From positions 1-21,064 of IMG/VR virus record IMGVR_UViG_3300025759_000868: DNA of 21,064 nt. One strand, written 5' to 3'. Below, piece by piece: positions 11 through 20,986 of the stretch. Every line of letters begins with the position of its first letter. Within the stretch, counting starts at the first letter, position 1. The translations under genes were made by a program, and so were the position numbers. Source of the stretch: a virus. The notes beneath the pieces are model-generated. The model made no database searches. It was not told the origin of the DNA and saw only the letters and a list, made by a program, of their open reading frames with translations.

Positions 11-427
11 TTATATAAACTTAATCCACGAAAATATATGTCCTGGTAAATTTTCTTGTAAATATGGTTTTGTAAACTCTAGTGCCGTAATATCCACTAT
101 AATATCTTCGATATTCATTATATCTCCGGCCTCTGAAACCCATTCTTGTTCATGTTCAAATGTTTCGCCTGGTGCACCTTGATATATATAGGGCGATAAT
201 GGAGGTAAATCATCACTACCAAATTCTAATCTAACTCCAATTTCATCGCCGGATTCAAATTCTTGAAAGGCCCATAAATTTTCATCGTCTGTAAAAGATA
301 TGTATTTACCCATTGCAGATTTTAATTTATTAGAATTTATGATGCCTACTAGGCCAGGAGCCGTTGTGAAATGATATACTAGGCTCGGATAATAATTATT
401 TTCGAGTAATGGTTTTAATCGTATCAT
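11..427 (-). CDS. ART-like small phage protein with N-terminal L-L-E tag
   Basis: A 138-residue protein, possibly an ADP-ribosyltransferase-fold enzyme. Seen: after a short basic/hydrophobic leader (MIRLKPLLE) comes V-Y-H19-F-T, then a helix with N-x-L, then I-S44-F-T-D-D, and an acidic patch near residues 88-95 (E88, E91, E93, E95). This order (H-[FY]-T, then a S-F-T strand, then a late Glu) matches the next gene, 482-1114, and resembles the NAD-binding layout of DarT/DUF4433-type and other ART folds; that assignment is inference. It is the last gene of the minus-strand run in this window. The start codon follows an AAAGGA site by about 11 bases. The 26 bases around the start are identical to those at the start of 482-1114, so the 5' end looks copied. 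L7-L8-E9 could be a prohead-protease cleavage site. It could also be a phage family of unknown function unrelated to ARTs. Confidence 0.6.
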   Translation of the reverse strand: MIRLKPLLENNYYPSLVYHFTTAPGLVGIINSNKLKSAMGKYISFTDDENLWAFQEFESGDEIGVRLEFGSDDLPPLSPYIYQGAPGETFEHEQEWVSEAGDIMNIEDIIVDITALEFTKPYLQENLPGHIFSWIKFI

Positions 428-481: not shown

Positions 482-1114
482 TTACATGGTTGGATCGCCT
501 GGAGTATCTATACCGGTCCAATCGAATTTTGTGGTTGATATATCTTTTTTAAACCAATTAAGTATTTTTTGTATAATAGATTGTTTTTCTTCATACGGTA
601 TCGGACTGCCATTTTTATCAACCATATTAATTGGAACTTTTTTCTCAATACAAAGCTTAATTGCATCTACTTGATTTTCATAACGAAACCACCATTCGGA
701 CTGATCTTTGTAATCTACTACCATATCAAAACTTATTAAGTAATTGTTTAATGGTATTGTAAAAGGCTTATCTGAAGTTATTCGTTCCTCTGCTTCAAAT
801 CCTTTCTTTGATTTAGCAAATGGGTCAACATCGCCTACTGCTCCCTGCACATATGGAGAAATCTTATACTTATTACTCAATTTATCTCCGTCAAATGTAA
901 AACGGCATTGAGGTTCCATAAACTTGCTTAAAGTTCTATGTTGTTTATGAAAGTTTTTATCTCTTGTAAATGAAACACTTGATAAATTATCATCTGACAT
1001 ACCACTTTTTAAGTTAGAGTCTTTAAGTATGTCGACAGCATTTTCATATATAGTGTAGTGATATAGTATACCTACTTGTTTAGCTTCTCTCAGTAAATCT
1101 ATTAATCGTATCAT
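482..1114 (-). CDS. ART-like phage protein with N-terminal L-R-E tag
   Basis: A 210-residue protein related to the neighbour at 11-427. Seen: leader MIRLIDLLRE ending L8-R9-E10, then L-Y-H19-Y-T, V-S48-F-T-R51-D, and E107-A-E109-E110-R-I. These blocks resemble the catalytic layout of ADP-ribosyltransferase-fold proteins (His and Arg/Ser for NAD, late Glu for catalysis); the function is inferred, not shown. A longer frame reaches 1192, but I chose the ATG at 1114. It gives the same MIRL start as the neighbouring paralogue, lies one base after the stop of the DUF5522-like gene, and avoids a long overlap with it. The C-terminal part (residues 140-210) is extra compared with the neighbour and carries a WWFRYENQ stretch. 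T4 Alt is a known ART that is packaged in the head and cleaved at L-x-E, which would fit the leader here. A non-ART family remains possible. Confidence 0.65.
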   Translation of the reverse strand: MIRLIDLLREAKQVGILYHYTIYENAVDILKDSNLKSGMSDDNLSSVSFTRDKNFHKQHRTLSKFMEPQCRFTFDGDKLSNKYKISPYVQGAVGDVDPFAKSKKGFEAEERITSDKPFTIPLNNYLISFDMVVDYKDQSEWWFRYENQVDAIKLCIEKKVPINMVDKNGSPIPYEEKQSIIQKILNWFKKDISTTKFDWTGIDTPGDPTM

Positions 1115-1127
1115 ATTAATAAATATC
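1102..1127 (-). repeat. 26-bp repeat at start of ART-like gene 2
   Basis: Identical to 415-440. Here it covers the D-I-Y-stop end of the DUF5522-like gene, the one-base gap, and the M-I-R-L start of the second ART-like gene. This shows that the junction itself, not just the reading frame, was copied. Confidence 0.9.
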
Positions 1128-1337
1128 ACCCAGGTTGGTATTGCCTTTTTTATGTTTGGGTTCATATGGACAATGCAGACACCCATTTCCACAACAAGAT
1201 CCTCTTCTTCGGTGATATGATTCGGTCATTACTTTATAACCAAGTTCATTATAATAAAAGTCAGTAGGAAGGAGCTTGTTTCCAAACTCCTTCACATACT
1301 GTTGATAAATCCAATCTTTCGATAGATTGATAATCAT
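1116..1337 (-). CDS. DUF5522-like cysteine-cluster protein
   Basis: A 73-residue protein. Residues 26-58 have a Y-Y-N-E-x-G-Y-x-V-M-T-E-x-Y-H core followed by R-G-S-C48-C49-G-N-G-C53-L-H55-C56-P-Y. This closely fits my memory of the DUF5522 family, small proteins common in Bacteroidota, with a clustered four-Cys motif that could bind a metal or an Fe-S centre. The biochemical function is unknown to me. The start ATG comes one base after the stop of the histone-like gene, and its own stop is one base before the ATG of the ART-like gene, so the three are probably translated from one message. The last codons (G-D-I-Y-stop) are part of a 26-base sequence that recurs at the start of 11-427. It is probably a host-derived gene. 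Confidence 0.75.
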   Translation of the reverse strand: MIINLSKDWIYQQYVKEFGNKLLPTDFYYNELGYKVMTESYHRRRGSCCGNGCLHCPYEPKHKKGNTNLGDIY

Positions 1338-8425: not shown

Positions 8426-8761
8426 TTATACTTTATTTTCTATAGTATCCCAATCTACATCCCATTCATAATCTCCGCCGCCCATAACAACAGCTTCTGC
8501 CTGAACTGTCCATTTACCGCCATTTTGATCTGTACCCATTAAATCACCATGCCAAGTATAATTGTCTACCTGATCCTCTAACTCATAGTCATCAAAATCA
8601 ATGTTAACTGTTTGGCCTTTGTGATTGTATATAACATTAACATAAGGCAAGGATCCTTTAATGTCAATTACTTTGTCGAGTGGTGGTTGAGTTTGTTCAG
8701 GTAGATTCTTGGTTGCGAATCTCCTCATATTTTCTGCTAGTATTCCTGATACGTGTTTCAT
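8426..8761 (-). CDS. Tagged small phage protein (ENMRRF-TKNL leader)
   Basis: A 111-residue protein of unknown function. I chose ATG 8761 rather than 8782. It lies one base after the stop of the upstream gene, has GGA five bases ahead, and aligns the leader MKHVSGILAENMRRFATKNLP with the leader of 8763-9392. The leader contains L8-A9-E10, a possible prohead-protease site, followed by the E-N-M-R-R-F-x-T-K-N-L-P block. The body is acidic with many Asp and Trp (Y-T-W-H-G-D-L-M, G-G-K-W-T-V-Q-A, D-Y-E-W-D-V-D-W-D) and looks like a small beta-rich domain. It is likely translationally coupled to the gene before it. Confidence 0.75.
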   Translation of the reverse strand: MKHVSGILAENMRRFATKNLPEQTQPPLDKVIDIKGSLPYVNVIYNHKGQTVNIDFDDYELEDQVDNYTWHGDLMGTDQNGGKWTVQAEAVVMGGGDYEWDVDWDTIENKV

Positions 8762-8762
8762 A

Positions 8763-9392
8763 TTATCCATATTTAAGTTCATCTTTTAATTCTTTAACTA
8801 TTACCAAGAATTGTTTAGCTAGTTTCTTATCTTCTTCAGGTGTTAAATAATCATTATCATCAAAAAATTTGTCTGCTGTATGATTCAATTCTTGCGGTAA
8901 ATTGTCGTCTAAATAATTTAGTGGATAATCTCCGCCAAATTCGCTAGTTAGATCATATAGTTGGTCATATGCTTTTTGAGCTAATCCTTTATTATTATAT
9001 TTCTTTTGATTTTGATTAGGAGATGAACTTGATTCGATATCTGGTGCATAGTGAATTGCTCCAGTTTCTTGATCTCCAATACCTGTAGGTCCTGTCATTA
9101 CATTGAATCGAGTACCTGGTATTATATTGCTCAAAGCATCTCGTATATCAAAATAGACATCATCAATTTCTGTTTTAGCCGGGTCAATAAAAATTGTTAA
9201 TGGAGCTTTAGTACTACCATATGCTATTTCAGTATCTGCTGTAGCATCAATCATTCCCAACTTTTTCAATGACGGTGCTTTTTTAATAGTATTTAAAATA
9301 TCTGTTGAAATATTTTCTTGTAAACTAACTACATCTGCAGGCAGATTCTTAGTACGAAATCTACGCATGTTTTCTTTTAAAATATTTTTCAT
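8763..9392 (-). CDS. Tagged phage protein (ENMRRF-TKNL leader)
   Basis: A 209-residue protein of unknown function. It starts MKNILKE-N-M-R-R-F-R-T-K-N-L-P, the same leader block as the downstream gene 8426-8761 and one that I recall from other marine phage proteins. L5-K6-E7 may be a cleavage site. Residues 40-125 look like an alpha/beta domain (I-D-A-T-A-D-T-E-I-A-Y, L-T-I-F-I-D-P, F-D-I-R-D-A-L). There follows a polar S/N/Q linker (126-141) and a helical, acidic C-terminal half with K-K-L-A-K-Q-F-L-V-I-V-K-E-L. The Shine-Dalgarno sequence is weak (AAAAGAATAATT). It sits among other small tagged genes between the replication and tail modules. Confidence 0.75.
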   Translation of the reverse strand: MKNILKENMRRFRTKNLPADVVSLQENISTDILNTIKKAPSLKKLGMIDATADTEIAYGSTKAPLTIFIDPAKTEIDDVYFDIRDALSNIIPGTRFNVMTGPTGIGDQETGAIHYAPDIESSSSPNQNQKKYNNKGLAQKAYDQLYDLTSEFGGDYPLNYLDDNLPQELNHTADKFFDDNDYLTPEEDKKLAKQFLVIVKELKDELKYG

Positions 9393-9431: not shown

Positions 9432-9638
9432 TCAATATTGAATGTTTAATTTCTTTTCAATTTCTTTAACTCTGAACTCTAAATCAATAATGCTCTCCCA
9501 ATATGGGTCATCTGATGATTCAACGCCTTGCATCTTTAAAGATTCTTTCTCTTGTTCTTTCAATGTGAAAGCTTTCACAATTCTTTTTAAATCAGATTCC
9601 GTCAGATTAATCACTTTACCGTTTTTTTTAATTTTCAT
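9432..9638 (-). CDS. Small tagged protein with NLTESDLKRIVK leader
   Basis: A 68-residue protein. Its N-terminus I-N-L-T-E-S-D-L-K-R-I-V-K (10-22) is a short amphipathic motif I recognise as recurring at the start of many small proteins of uncultured marine phages. L12-T13-E14 and L26-K27-E28 are both L-x-E tripeptides. The rest is charged, with a probable coiled-coil end (E-F-R-V-K-E-I-E-K-K-L, 54-64). It follows the 129-residue gene after a GC-rich hairpin and uses an AAAGAAAT Shine-Dalgarno-like sequence. Function unknown; a head-packaged or scaffold-associated role is inference only. Confidence 0.7.
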   Translation of the reverse strand: MKIKKNGKVINLTESDLKRIVKAFTLKEQEKESLKMQGVESSDDPYWESIIDLEFRVKEIEKKLNIQY

Positions 9639-9685: not shown

Positions 9686-9709
9686 TAGGTTATTTTAAAT
9701 ATAAATATA

Positions 9710-10102: not shown

Positions 10103-11332
10103 TTAGTCCTCAATTAATTCTGTTTCAGAATCGTCTTCAATTTGTTCAGGCAGAATACTTTTTTCTACTATACGAACTCGGCCGGCGTCTACTACGTAAT
10201 ACCGAAAGTCATTAGTAACATTTACACGATTATTTCTAAATACTATAAACAATAAATCATTACCAACTATTTCATCAACCGCAACTTGTAAATCGCTATC
10301 TAATAATTCAGGATTTCTAACATACCGAATTCTTCGTAATTCAGTATTAATATATGTTATGTTTTGACTATTATCTAGAATAGGCGTTAATACTATTTTT
10401 TCTCCCGGTGTTTTCACTGGCTCAATAGACATTTCAATTGGAGTTGCATTTGGCCCTCTTAAAATAACATTGGTATATCCTTCGATATCAGAATTTAATT
10501 TATTTGCATGTAAATAAAATTGTTCTAAGTATCGTTTATCTGTTAAATTTAAATTTCCTGCTAATATAAATGAACGTCGGTCATTTAAATAATTAATAGA
10601 ATCTAAAAACGGCTGTTCGAAATATTCATTAAAGTCAAATTTTGGAGAATCAATTCCCTGTAACTGTGATATACGTTTAAGTGTACTAGTTATTTCATCC
10701 CAAAATTTAAATCTAGTAACGCTACCTTTTGTACCTAAACGAATTGATGCATTTGCTCTTTTTGTATAATCTTTTATTTCATATTGTTGTCCAGCAAGTA
10801 CTAAATCATATGATGTTGTACCTCCCTGTATTTGTGCCCCCCGAAATAACGATGCTAATAATATTTCTCCCTTTCCTAATCCTTTATCATCTAAATTAAA
10901 TAATTCGAAATTAATACCAGATTTATAATTTATTTTATTTAATGACTCTTCTGATATTTTTTGTTGCGAATATAATAAAGATGCAAATTGATTAGCAAAT
11001 TCTTCGGATATATTATTTAAGTATTTAATTGTTAGATTATTCGCTTCGGTTGGTAGTAACTTTAAAAATGTTTTAAATTCTGCAGTTTTACCAACTTCTT
11101 CAATTCGATCTAATAATACCTGATTATCAATTGAGTCGATATCAATCTCCTCCGTTACAATAGTTGTTGGTAATCCTTTAGCAGCTTGGACAATTTGATT
11201 GATTCCCATATCGGACAAATCTGTCATTTCTAAAAGAACATCCCGTAAAACTTCATAATCTTGTTCATTCTTAGGATAACCAGATTCTAATCGATATGTC
11301 CATTCAGTAAGTATAGAGTTGATAGTTGTCAT
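10103..11332 (-). CDS. Putative PD-(D/E)XK nuclease with ILTEW-YR leader
   Basis: A 409-residue protein. A central block fits a PD-(D/E)XK nuclease core: G-L-G-K-G-E156 at the start, S-Y-D176-L-V-L, then Y-E185-I-K187-D-Y, followed by R-L-G-T-K-G (198-203), the usual metal-ligand spacing of E...D...E-x-K. The N-terminus I-L-T-E-W-T-Y-R-L-E-S-G-Y-P resembles the E-W-x-Y-R-x-x-x-G-x-P opening that I recall from a group of marine phage proteins. L8-T9-E10 also fits the L-x-E tag seen in nearby small proteins. The gene overlaps the polymerase-like gene by 4 bases (ATGA), so the two are translationally coupled. Its role could be DNA processing during packaging or repair, or degradation of competitor DNA. 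The assignment is motif-based. Confidence 0.65.
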   Translation of the reverse strand: MTTINSILTEWTYRLESGYPKNEQDYEVLRDVLLEMTDLSDMGINQIVQAAKGLPTTIVTEEIDIDSIDNQVLLDRIEEVGKTAEFKTFLKLLPTEANNLTIKYLNNISEEFANQFASLLYSQQKISEESLNKINYKSGINFELFNLDDKGLGKGEILLASLFRGAQIQGGTTSYDLVLAGQQYEIKDYTKRANASIRLGTKGSVTRFKFWDEITSTLKRISQLQGIDSPKFDFNEYFEQPFLDSINYLNDRRSFILAGNLNLTDKRYLEQFYLHANKLNSDIEGYTNVILRGPNATPIEMSIEPVKTPGEKIVLTPILDNSQNITYINTELRRIRYVRNPELLDSDLQVAVDEIVGNDLLFIVFRNNRVNVTNDFRYYVVDAGRVRIVEKSILPEQIEDDSETELIED

Positions 11333-19255: not shown

Positions 19256-19284
19256 GTTTGCCTAAACATCTTTATTATAAATAT

Positions 19285-20269: not shown

Positions 20270-20309
20270 ACTTTCCTTATTATAACTTTATTATAAATAT
20301 AAGATCAGT

Positions 20310-20948: not shown

Positions 20949-20986
20949 TTATATCCTTTTCTTTTTATATAAATATTATATACAGT

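What the first reader, a model, noticed from the sequence alone, without database searches (positions are those of the whole stretch)
8426..9392. ENMRRF-x-TKNLP leader conserved at protein level despite synonymous change
Adjacent genes 8426-8761 and 8763-9392 share E-N-M-R-R-F-x-T-K-N-L-P but unrelated bodies. In this block five codons differ synonymously (AAT/AAC, AGG/CGT, TTC/TTT, ACC/ACT, CTA/CTG) and only one changes the residue. The leader is therefore held by selection on the peptide and is not a fresh copy. This suggests a sorting or docking tag that continues past the possible L-x-E cut.
Basis: seen in the sequence. Interest (0 to 1): 0.65.

Follow-up and report, generated by a model that had tools for sequence, protein, structure and literature searches.

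The report
Capsid-targeting leader of phage cargo proteins
Two neighbouring phage genes share a 22-residue N-terminal tag found on at least 62 otherwise unrelated protein families of uncultured T4-like water phages; it looks like a removable address label that loads proteins into the virus head for injection into the host, so it offers a sequence handle for finding injected phage proteins.

Summary
Two adjacent minus-strand genes share ENMRRFxTKNLP at their N-termini, with five synonymous codon differences and one changed residue, in front of unrelated bodies. A viral-contig scan returned at least 120 loci (capped). In my sample the leader (consensus MKKNILAENMRRFGTKNLNE) precedes 62 unrelated body clusters, always near the N-terminus. 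Codons vary while the peptide stays (pN/pS 0.23).

Best explanation: a variant T4-type capsid-targeting sequence (CTS), cut off by the prohead protease after L-x-E.
- Of 20 larger records examined (19 leader contigs plus a short-leader relative), 17 encode peptidase S77 and 16 Gp23.
- The same genomes carry a 10-residue leader, MIKLKxLLxE, in the residue-4/7/8/10 register mapped experimentally in T4 IPIII.
- About seven body families, including the window's first gene, occur with either leader, most junctions at or near the L-x-E glutamate.
- When the second L-x-E is lost (13 of 130 leaders), another lies within 15 residues in all 13 (background 7%).
- Tagged genes are enriched for an AT-rich upstream motif that also precedes virion genes.

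Packaging and cleavage are inferred; no proteomics.

The parts
8426..8761 (-). Gene 1: long leader plus an acidic 89-aa body (pI 4.05, net charge -13)
   Evidence: ORF; body family fetched without the leader occurs with long or short leaders; charge
8696..8761 (-). Long leader of gene 1, MKHVSGILAE-NMRRFATKNLPE; first L-x-E ends at 8732, second L-x-E (inferred cut) ends at 8696
8763..9392 (-). Gene 2: long leader plus an acidic 183-aa body (pI 4.52) in two segments; the body's C-terminal part resembles that of another leader protein (L040, seen by eye)
   Evidence: ORF; relatives (L040)
9315..9392 (-). Long leader of gene 2, MKNILKE-NMRRFRTKNLPADVVSLQE; the second L-x-E is displaced to SLQE (relative L243: FFLQE)
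401..427 (-). Short leader MIRLKPLLE on ORF 11-427 (ADP-ribosyltransferase-like body, weak match below cut-off)
   Evidence: (Tox-ART-HYD1 E 0.015)
1085..1114 (-). Short leader MIRLIDLLRE on ORF 482-1114 (body begins AKQVGILYHYT)
   Evidence: Mel-JY01 protein MIKLKSLLQE|IISDRVWHLTT looks similar by eye
11303..11332 (-). Possible short leader MTTINSILTE on ORF 10103-11332, in the 4/7/8/10 register; conserved in relatives (MNKVNEILTE|WTYQL, MTIDSILTE|WSYRL)
9700..9707 (-). TATTTATA upstream of the 9638 -> 8426 gene run; weak late-promoter candidate
   Evidence: the number in the window alone is not above chance

Best explanation
The leader is an extended, variant T4-type capsid-targeting sequence (CTS). 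As the prohead core assembles, the N-terminal peptide docks its protein onto the core. The phage's S77 prohead protease then cuts after L-x-E (the second one, NLxE| or a displaced equivalent; the first, LAE|N, may also be cut). This frees the unrelated body inside the head, to be injected with the DNA. The two window genes are thus predicted to be internal, injected accessory proteins. Shown here: modular N-terminal leader, peptide-level selection, L-x-E boundary, interchange with a T4-register 10-residue leader, co-occurrence with S77 protease and Gp23 in relatives. Inferred: docking, cleavage, packaging, injection and the effector role of the bodies.
For: (a) The long leader is N-terminal: the first E is residue 6-12 in 126 of 130 unique leaders, and 4 lack a nearby Met. 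It precedes 62 body clusters. (b) 17 of 20 large records encode peptidase S77 (16 at E 5e-31 to 6e-36, one truncated hit at 1e-16) and 16 of 20 encode Gp23 (best E below 1e-61); records without a match are 40-93 kb fragments. MCPs carry a T4-like propeptide with inferred cut ..[VI]xE|A/S. (c) Short leaders MIKLKxLLxE on the same genomes: among N-terminal windows with [LI]8-x-E10, residue 4 is hydrophobic in 70% against 28% of internal controls and residue 7 in 83% against 36% (p 8e-5, 4e-6). In T4 IPIII residues 4 and 7 direct packaging and 8 and 10 processing, within the first 10 residues (PMC9026906). (d) About seven body families occur with long or short leader, most junctions at or within 3 residues of the L-x-E glutamate, e.g. 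NLHE|NEESDKRFAEY and LLAE|NEESDKRFAEY. (e) All 13 leaders (9 clusters) lacking the second L-x-E have another [LI]xE within 15 residues, background 7.1%. (f) TATTTATA, found upstream of portal-, sheath- and tube-like genes, precedes 61% of long-leader, 38% of short-leader and 18% of other genes. (g) In T4, internal proteins share only this leader, are diverse and are injected anti-restriction factors (PMC3012670, PMC12373910).
Against: There is no virion proteomics or cleavage assay for any member. The window fragment itself lacks the head genes. The strict residue-10 register holds for short leaders but only about a third of long ones (E at residue 6-12), so the extension must do something T4's CTS does not. 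Some tagged bodies are peptidoglycan hydrolases, which might act in lysis rather than inside the head. The MCP site is V/I-x-E rather than L-x-E. The upstream motif is the reverse complement of the T4 late consensus (from own knowledge). The link to S77 may partly reflect shared ancestry of one T4-like clade.
Confidence: 0.85

Rival explanations
1. The leader is a docking tag for another phage-made structure or compartment (tail, nucleus-like shell, membrane complex) and is not a head CTS.
For: The long leader has a conserved 12-residue extension (NMRRFxTKNLxE) with no counterpart in T4; tagged bodies include cell-wall hydrolases typical of tails.
Against: Interchange with the T4-register short leader, the compulsory L-x-E, and S77/Gp23 in the same genomes.
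Confidence: 0.08
2. The leader is a conserved DNA or RNA element (recombination site for cassette shuffling, or translation signal) whose peptide is incidental.
For: Leaders sit at cassette boundaries and tagged genes share an upstream AT-rich motif.
Against: Arg, Leu, Thr, Phe and Gly codons vary freely at constant residues (AGA, CGT, CGC, CGA, CGG and AGG all used for Arg); pN/pS 0.23. Junctions track L-x-E, a protein feature.
Confidence: 0.03
3. Ordinary homology: one large, fast-diverging protein family whose N-terminus is merely the slowest part.
For: Some bodies share spacer modules (DSDQNNNGYPDGTE, DLENKLGFDSGANRDPKTGNL), so not every body is independent.
Against: 62 clusters by BLAST, bodies with distinct domains by Pfam, and the same body with either of two leaders.
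Confidence: 0.04

Closest known systems
Phage T4 capsid-targeting sequence of IPI, IPII, IPIII and Alt (propeptide removed by gp21)
   Same: N-terminal peptide shared by otherwise unrelated proteins, ends at [LI]-x-E, hydrophobic residues 4 and 7 in the short form, S77 protease and Gp23 in the same genomes, diverse accessory bodies
   Different: A strongly conserved 12-residue extension NMRRFxTKNLxE giving two L-x-E sites; no obvious sequence identity to the T4 peptide; far more body families; exact register relaxed in the long form
Propeptides of giant Salmonella phage SPN3US cut by its prohead protease
   Same: Head-packaged, protease-trimmed ejection proteins (from the literature, PMC5694885, PMC7411985, PMC10052503, abstracts only)
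   Different: A separate giant-phage group; no shared ENMRRF-type consensus leader is described for it in the abstracts read; not compared by sequence here
Short leaders of Microcystis phage Mel-JY01 (PP395634)
   Same: Nearest annotated relative found with the window's RecA-like protein (57% identity); S77 and Gp23 present; MIKLKSLLQE leader on a protein that resembles the window's ART-like ones by eye
   Different: No long ENMRRF leader found in its 190 kb with the DNA pattern

Membership tests
T4-type capsid-targeting sequence (CTS) | At the extreme N-terminus | tested here: met
   first L-x-E glutamate at residue 6-12 in 126 of 130 unique long leaders; 4 have no Met within 25 residues
T4-type capsid-targeting sequence (CTS) | Ends at an [LI]-x-E processing site | tested here: met
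   117 of 130 at the canonical place, the other 13 within 15 residues; background 7.1%
T4-type capsid-targeting sequence (CTS) | 10-residue register with targeting residues 4 and 7, processing residues 8 and 10 (PMC9026906) | tested here: inconclusive
   met for short leaders; long leaders have E at residue 10 in 41 of 126, otherwise 6-12
T4-type capsid-targeting sequence (CTS) | Shared by unrelated proteins, interchangeable between bodies | tested here: met
   62 body clusters; about seven families with long/short swaps
T4-type capsid-targeting sequence (CTS) | Genome encodes an S77 prohead protease and a Gp23-type capsid | tested here: met
   17 of 20 and 16 of 20 large records, 19 of them with the long leader; not testable in the 21 kb window itself
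T4-type capsid-targeting sequence (CTS) | Recognisable sequence similarity to the T4 peptide | not tested
   only the register was compared; the T4 peptide itself was not aligned here
T4-type capsid-targeting sequence (CTS) | Protein is inside the virion and cut by the prohead protease | not testable with these tools
   needs virion mass spectrometry or an in vitro cleavage assay

The most novel reading that the evidence does not exclude
The 12-residue extension NMRRFxTKNLxE is a second, distinct signal unknown in T4 (for example a separate core-binding site, a dose or ejection-order signal, or a two-step cut), so these phages run a two-signal cargo-loading system with dozens of exchangeable injected proteins.
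Probability: 0.25. Interest if true: 0.75.

Novelty: new variant of a known kind. Interest (0 to 1): 0.6.

Why it matters
Which proteins phages inject along with their DNA is mostly unknown outside T4, where such proteins block host restriction enzymes. A conserved, searchable leader in uncultured aquatic T4-like phages gives a way to list candidate injected proteins, mostly without known domains, straight from metagenomes and makes their testing direct. If the extension carries targeting information, it would also be a new cargo-loading signal. The leader was not found in 50,697 annotated phage records (tblastn of the consensus) nor its core string in any paper of the library.

Tried and rejected
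The leader in annotated phages (tblastn, E up to 10): no match; the bodies likewise. The leader in one genome for each of 84,980 bacterial and archaeal species: no match, so no prophage or host lead. AlphaFold models of both window proteins were poor (mean pLDDT 44.5 and 49.6; leader a low-confidence helix), so no fold search was run. First clustering by single linkage was rejected because shared spacers chained unrelated bodies; redone with 50% coverage. Internal initiation at the conserved Met of ENMRRF was considered and dropped: Leu replaces it in 4 of 62 clusters. PADLOC and NCBIfam matches to tagged bodies were mostly weak or coiled-coil-like, except the peptidoglycan hydrolases. A third leader type (LTESDLKRIV, 9432-9638) was found once only and is not a shared module in the sequences held. 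The single DRAT (ADP-ribosyltransferase) match was not traced to its protein.

Full report
Observation. On the minus strand, gene 1 (8426-8761, possible earlier start at 8782) begins MKHVSGILAENMRRFATKNLPEQ and gene 2 (8763-9392) begins MKNILKENMRRFRTKNLPAD. The pattern occurs twice in the window and never in 100 shuffles. The codon differences are exactly as described.

Distribution. These and the window hold about 140 leaders with consensus MKKNILAENMRRFGTKNLNE. From 211 unique tagged proteins (130 long leaders, 81 short ones of the form MIKLKxLLxE), bodies fell into 94 clusters, 62 of them with the long leader (BLAST, 50% coverage). A 104-member alignment shows the leader and then nothing in common. 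The genome collection gave no match, and neither did annotated phages.

Selection on the peptide. With one leader per body cluster, pN/pS is 0.23 over 16 codons. The search pattern fixed part of the peptide, so this is biased downward; on five codons outside the pattern it is 0.47. At constant residues codons vary freely.

Phage type. In 20 large records (19 leader contigs plus Mel-JY01, in which the long-leader pattern is absent), 17 hold peptidase S77 (T4 gp21 type) and 16 hold Gp23. The major capsid proteins have a T4-like N-terminal propeptide with an inferred V/I-x-E cut. The window's RecA-like protein is closest to that of Microcystis phage Mel-JY01 (57%).

The boundary is L-x-E. Relatives of the gene 1 body, fetched without the leader, carry either the long leader (..NLTE|QTQPP..) or a short one (MIRLKTLIE|QSQPP.., MIKLKPLLQE|SQPP..). 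Other families do the same: NLHE|NEESDKRFAEY and LLAE|NEESDKRFAEY; NLDE|AGKFYKG and LLGE|VGKFYKG; NLNE|DGDQNNNGYPDNTE and LINE|DGDQNNNGYPDNTE. Of 130 unique long leaders 117 end NLxE. The remaining 13, from 9 clusters and including gene 2, all have another [LI]xE within 15 residues, where 7.1% is expected from body sequence.

Match to T4. In T4 IPIII the first 10 residues suffice for packaging; residues 4 and 7 govern targeting, 8 and 10 processing (PMC9026906). In five genomes, N-terminal windows with [LI]8 and E10 are hydrophobic at 4 (70%) and 7 (83%), against 28% and 36% for internal methionines. The odds of such a window are 3.4 times those at internal methionines. The long form equals the short form plus NMRRFxTKNLxE, with a looser register.

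Expression. TATTTATA lies 20-35 bases upstream of genes that look like portal, sheath and tube genes in G003 and G004 (identified by eye from size and start, not by a family search) and of several window virion-type genes. It precedes 61% of long-leader, 38% of short-leader and 18% of other genes. Relatedness among contigs inflates the p-values, and the function of the motif is inferred.

Cargo. Most bodies have no known domain. Exceptions are phage lysozyme, tail-type lysozyme, VanY plus SLT, DUF5872 and one ADP-ribosyltransferase-like protein. Tagged bodies are more acidic than other genes (median pI 5.04 against 5.92; both window bodies below 4.6). Injected anti-restriction or host-takeover roles are plausible by analogy with T4 Ip1-3 and Alt (PMC12373910, PMC3012670, PMC9026906) but not shown.

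Limits. Gene calls are a greedy ORF selection. Short-leader counts depend on regular expressions. Loci include near-duplicates, and scans were capped. The window lacks the head genes. Packaging, cleavage and injection are inferred.

Noticed in passing
window 11-427 and 482-1114 (-): Two further genes with short T4-register leaders (MIRLKPLLE, MIRLIDLLRE) on bodies beginning ..YHFTT / ..YHYT; the first weakly matches an ADP-ribosyltransferase profile (below cut-off), which would parallel T4 Alt.
   Followed up: partly
window 10103-11332 (-): 409-aa protein without known domain begins MTTINSILTE|WTYRL; the start is conserved in relatives (G003, G004, L077) and may itself be a targeting leader.
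   Followed up: partly
G003, G004; window 19276-19283, 20292-20299, 20968-20975 (-): TATTTATA about 20-35 bases upstream of virion-type genes, probably a late-promoter element of this phage group, the reverse complement of the T4 late consensus.
   Followed up: partly
L008, L013, L027, L040, L051, L069, L119 and others: Shared spacer modules (D.DQNNNGYPD.TE, resembling a calcium-binding loop, and DLENKLGFDSGANRDPKTGNL) directly after leaders, before unrelated bodies.
   Followed up: partly
window 9432-9638 (-): 68-aa ORF with INLTESDLKRIVKAFTLKEQ, a look-alike with two L-x-E sites; found only here.
   Followed up: partly
window 1116-1337 (-): Small DUF5522 protein (E 2.4e-17) next to the ribonucleotide-reductase-like gene.
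   Followed up: no
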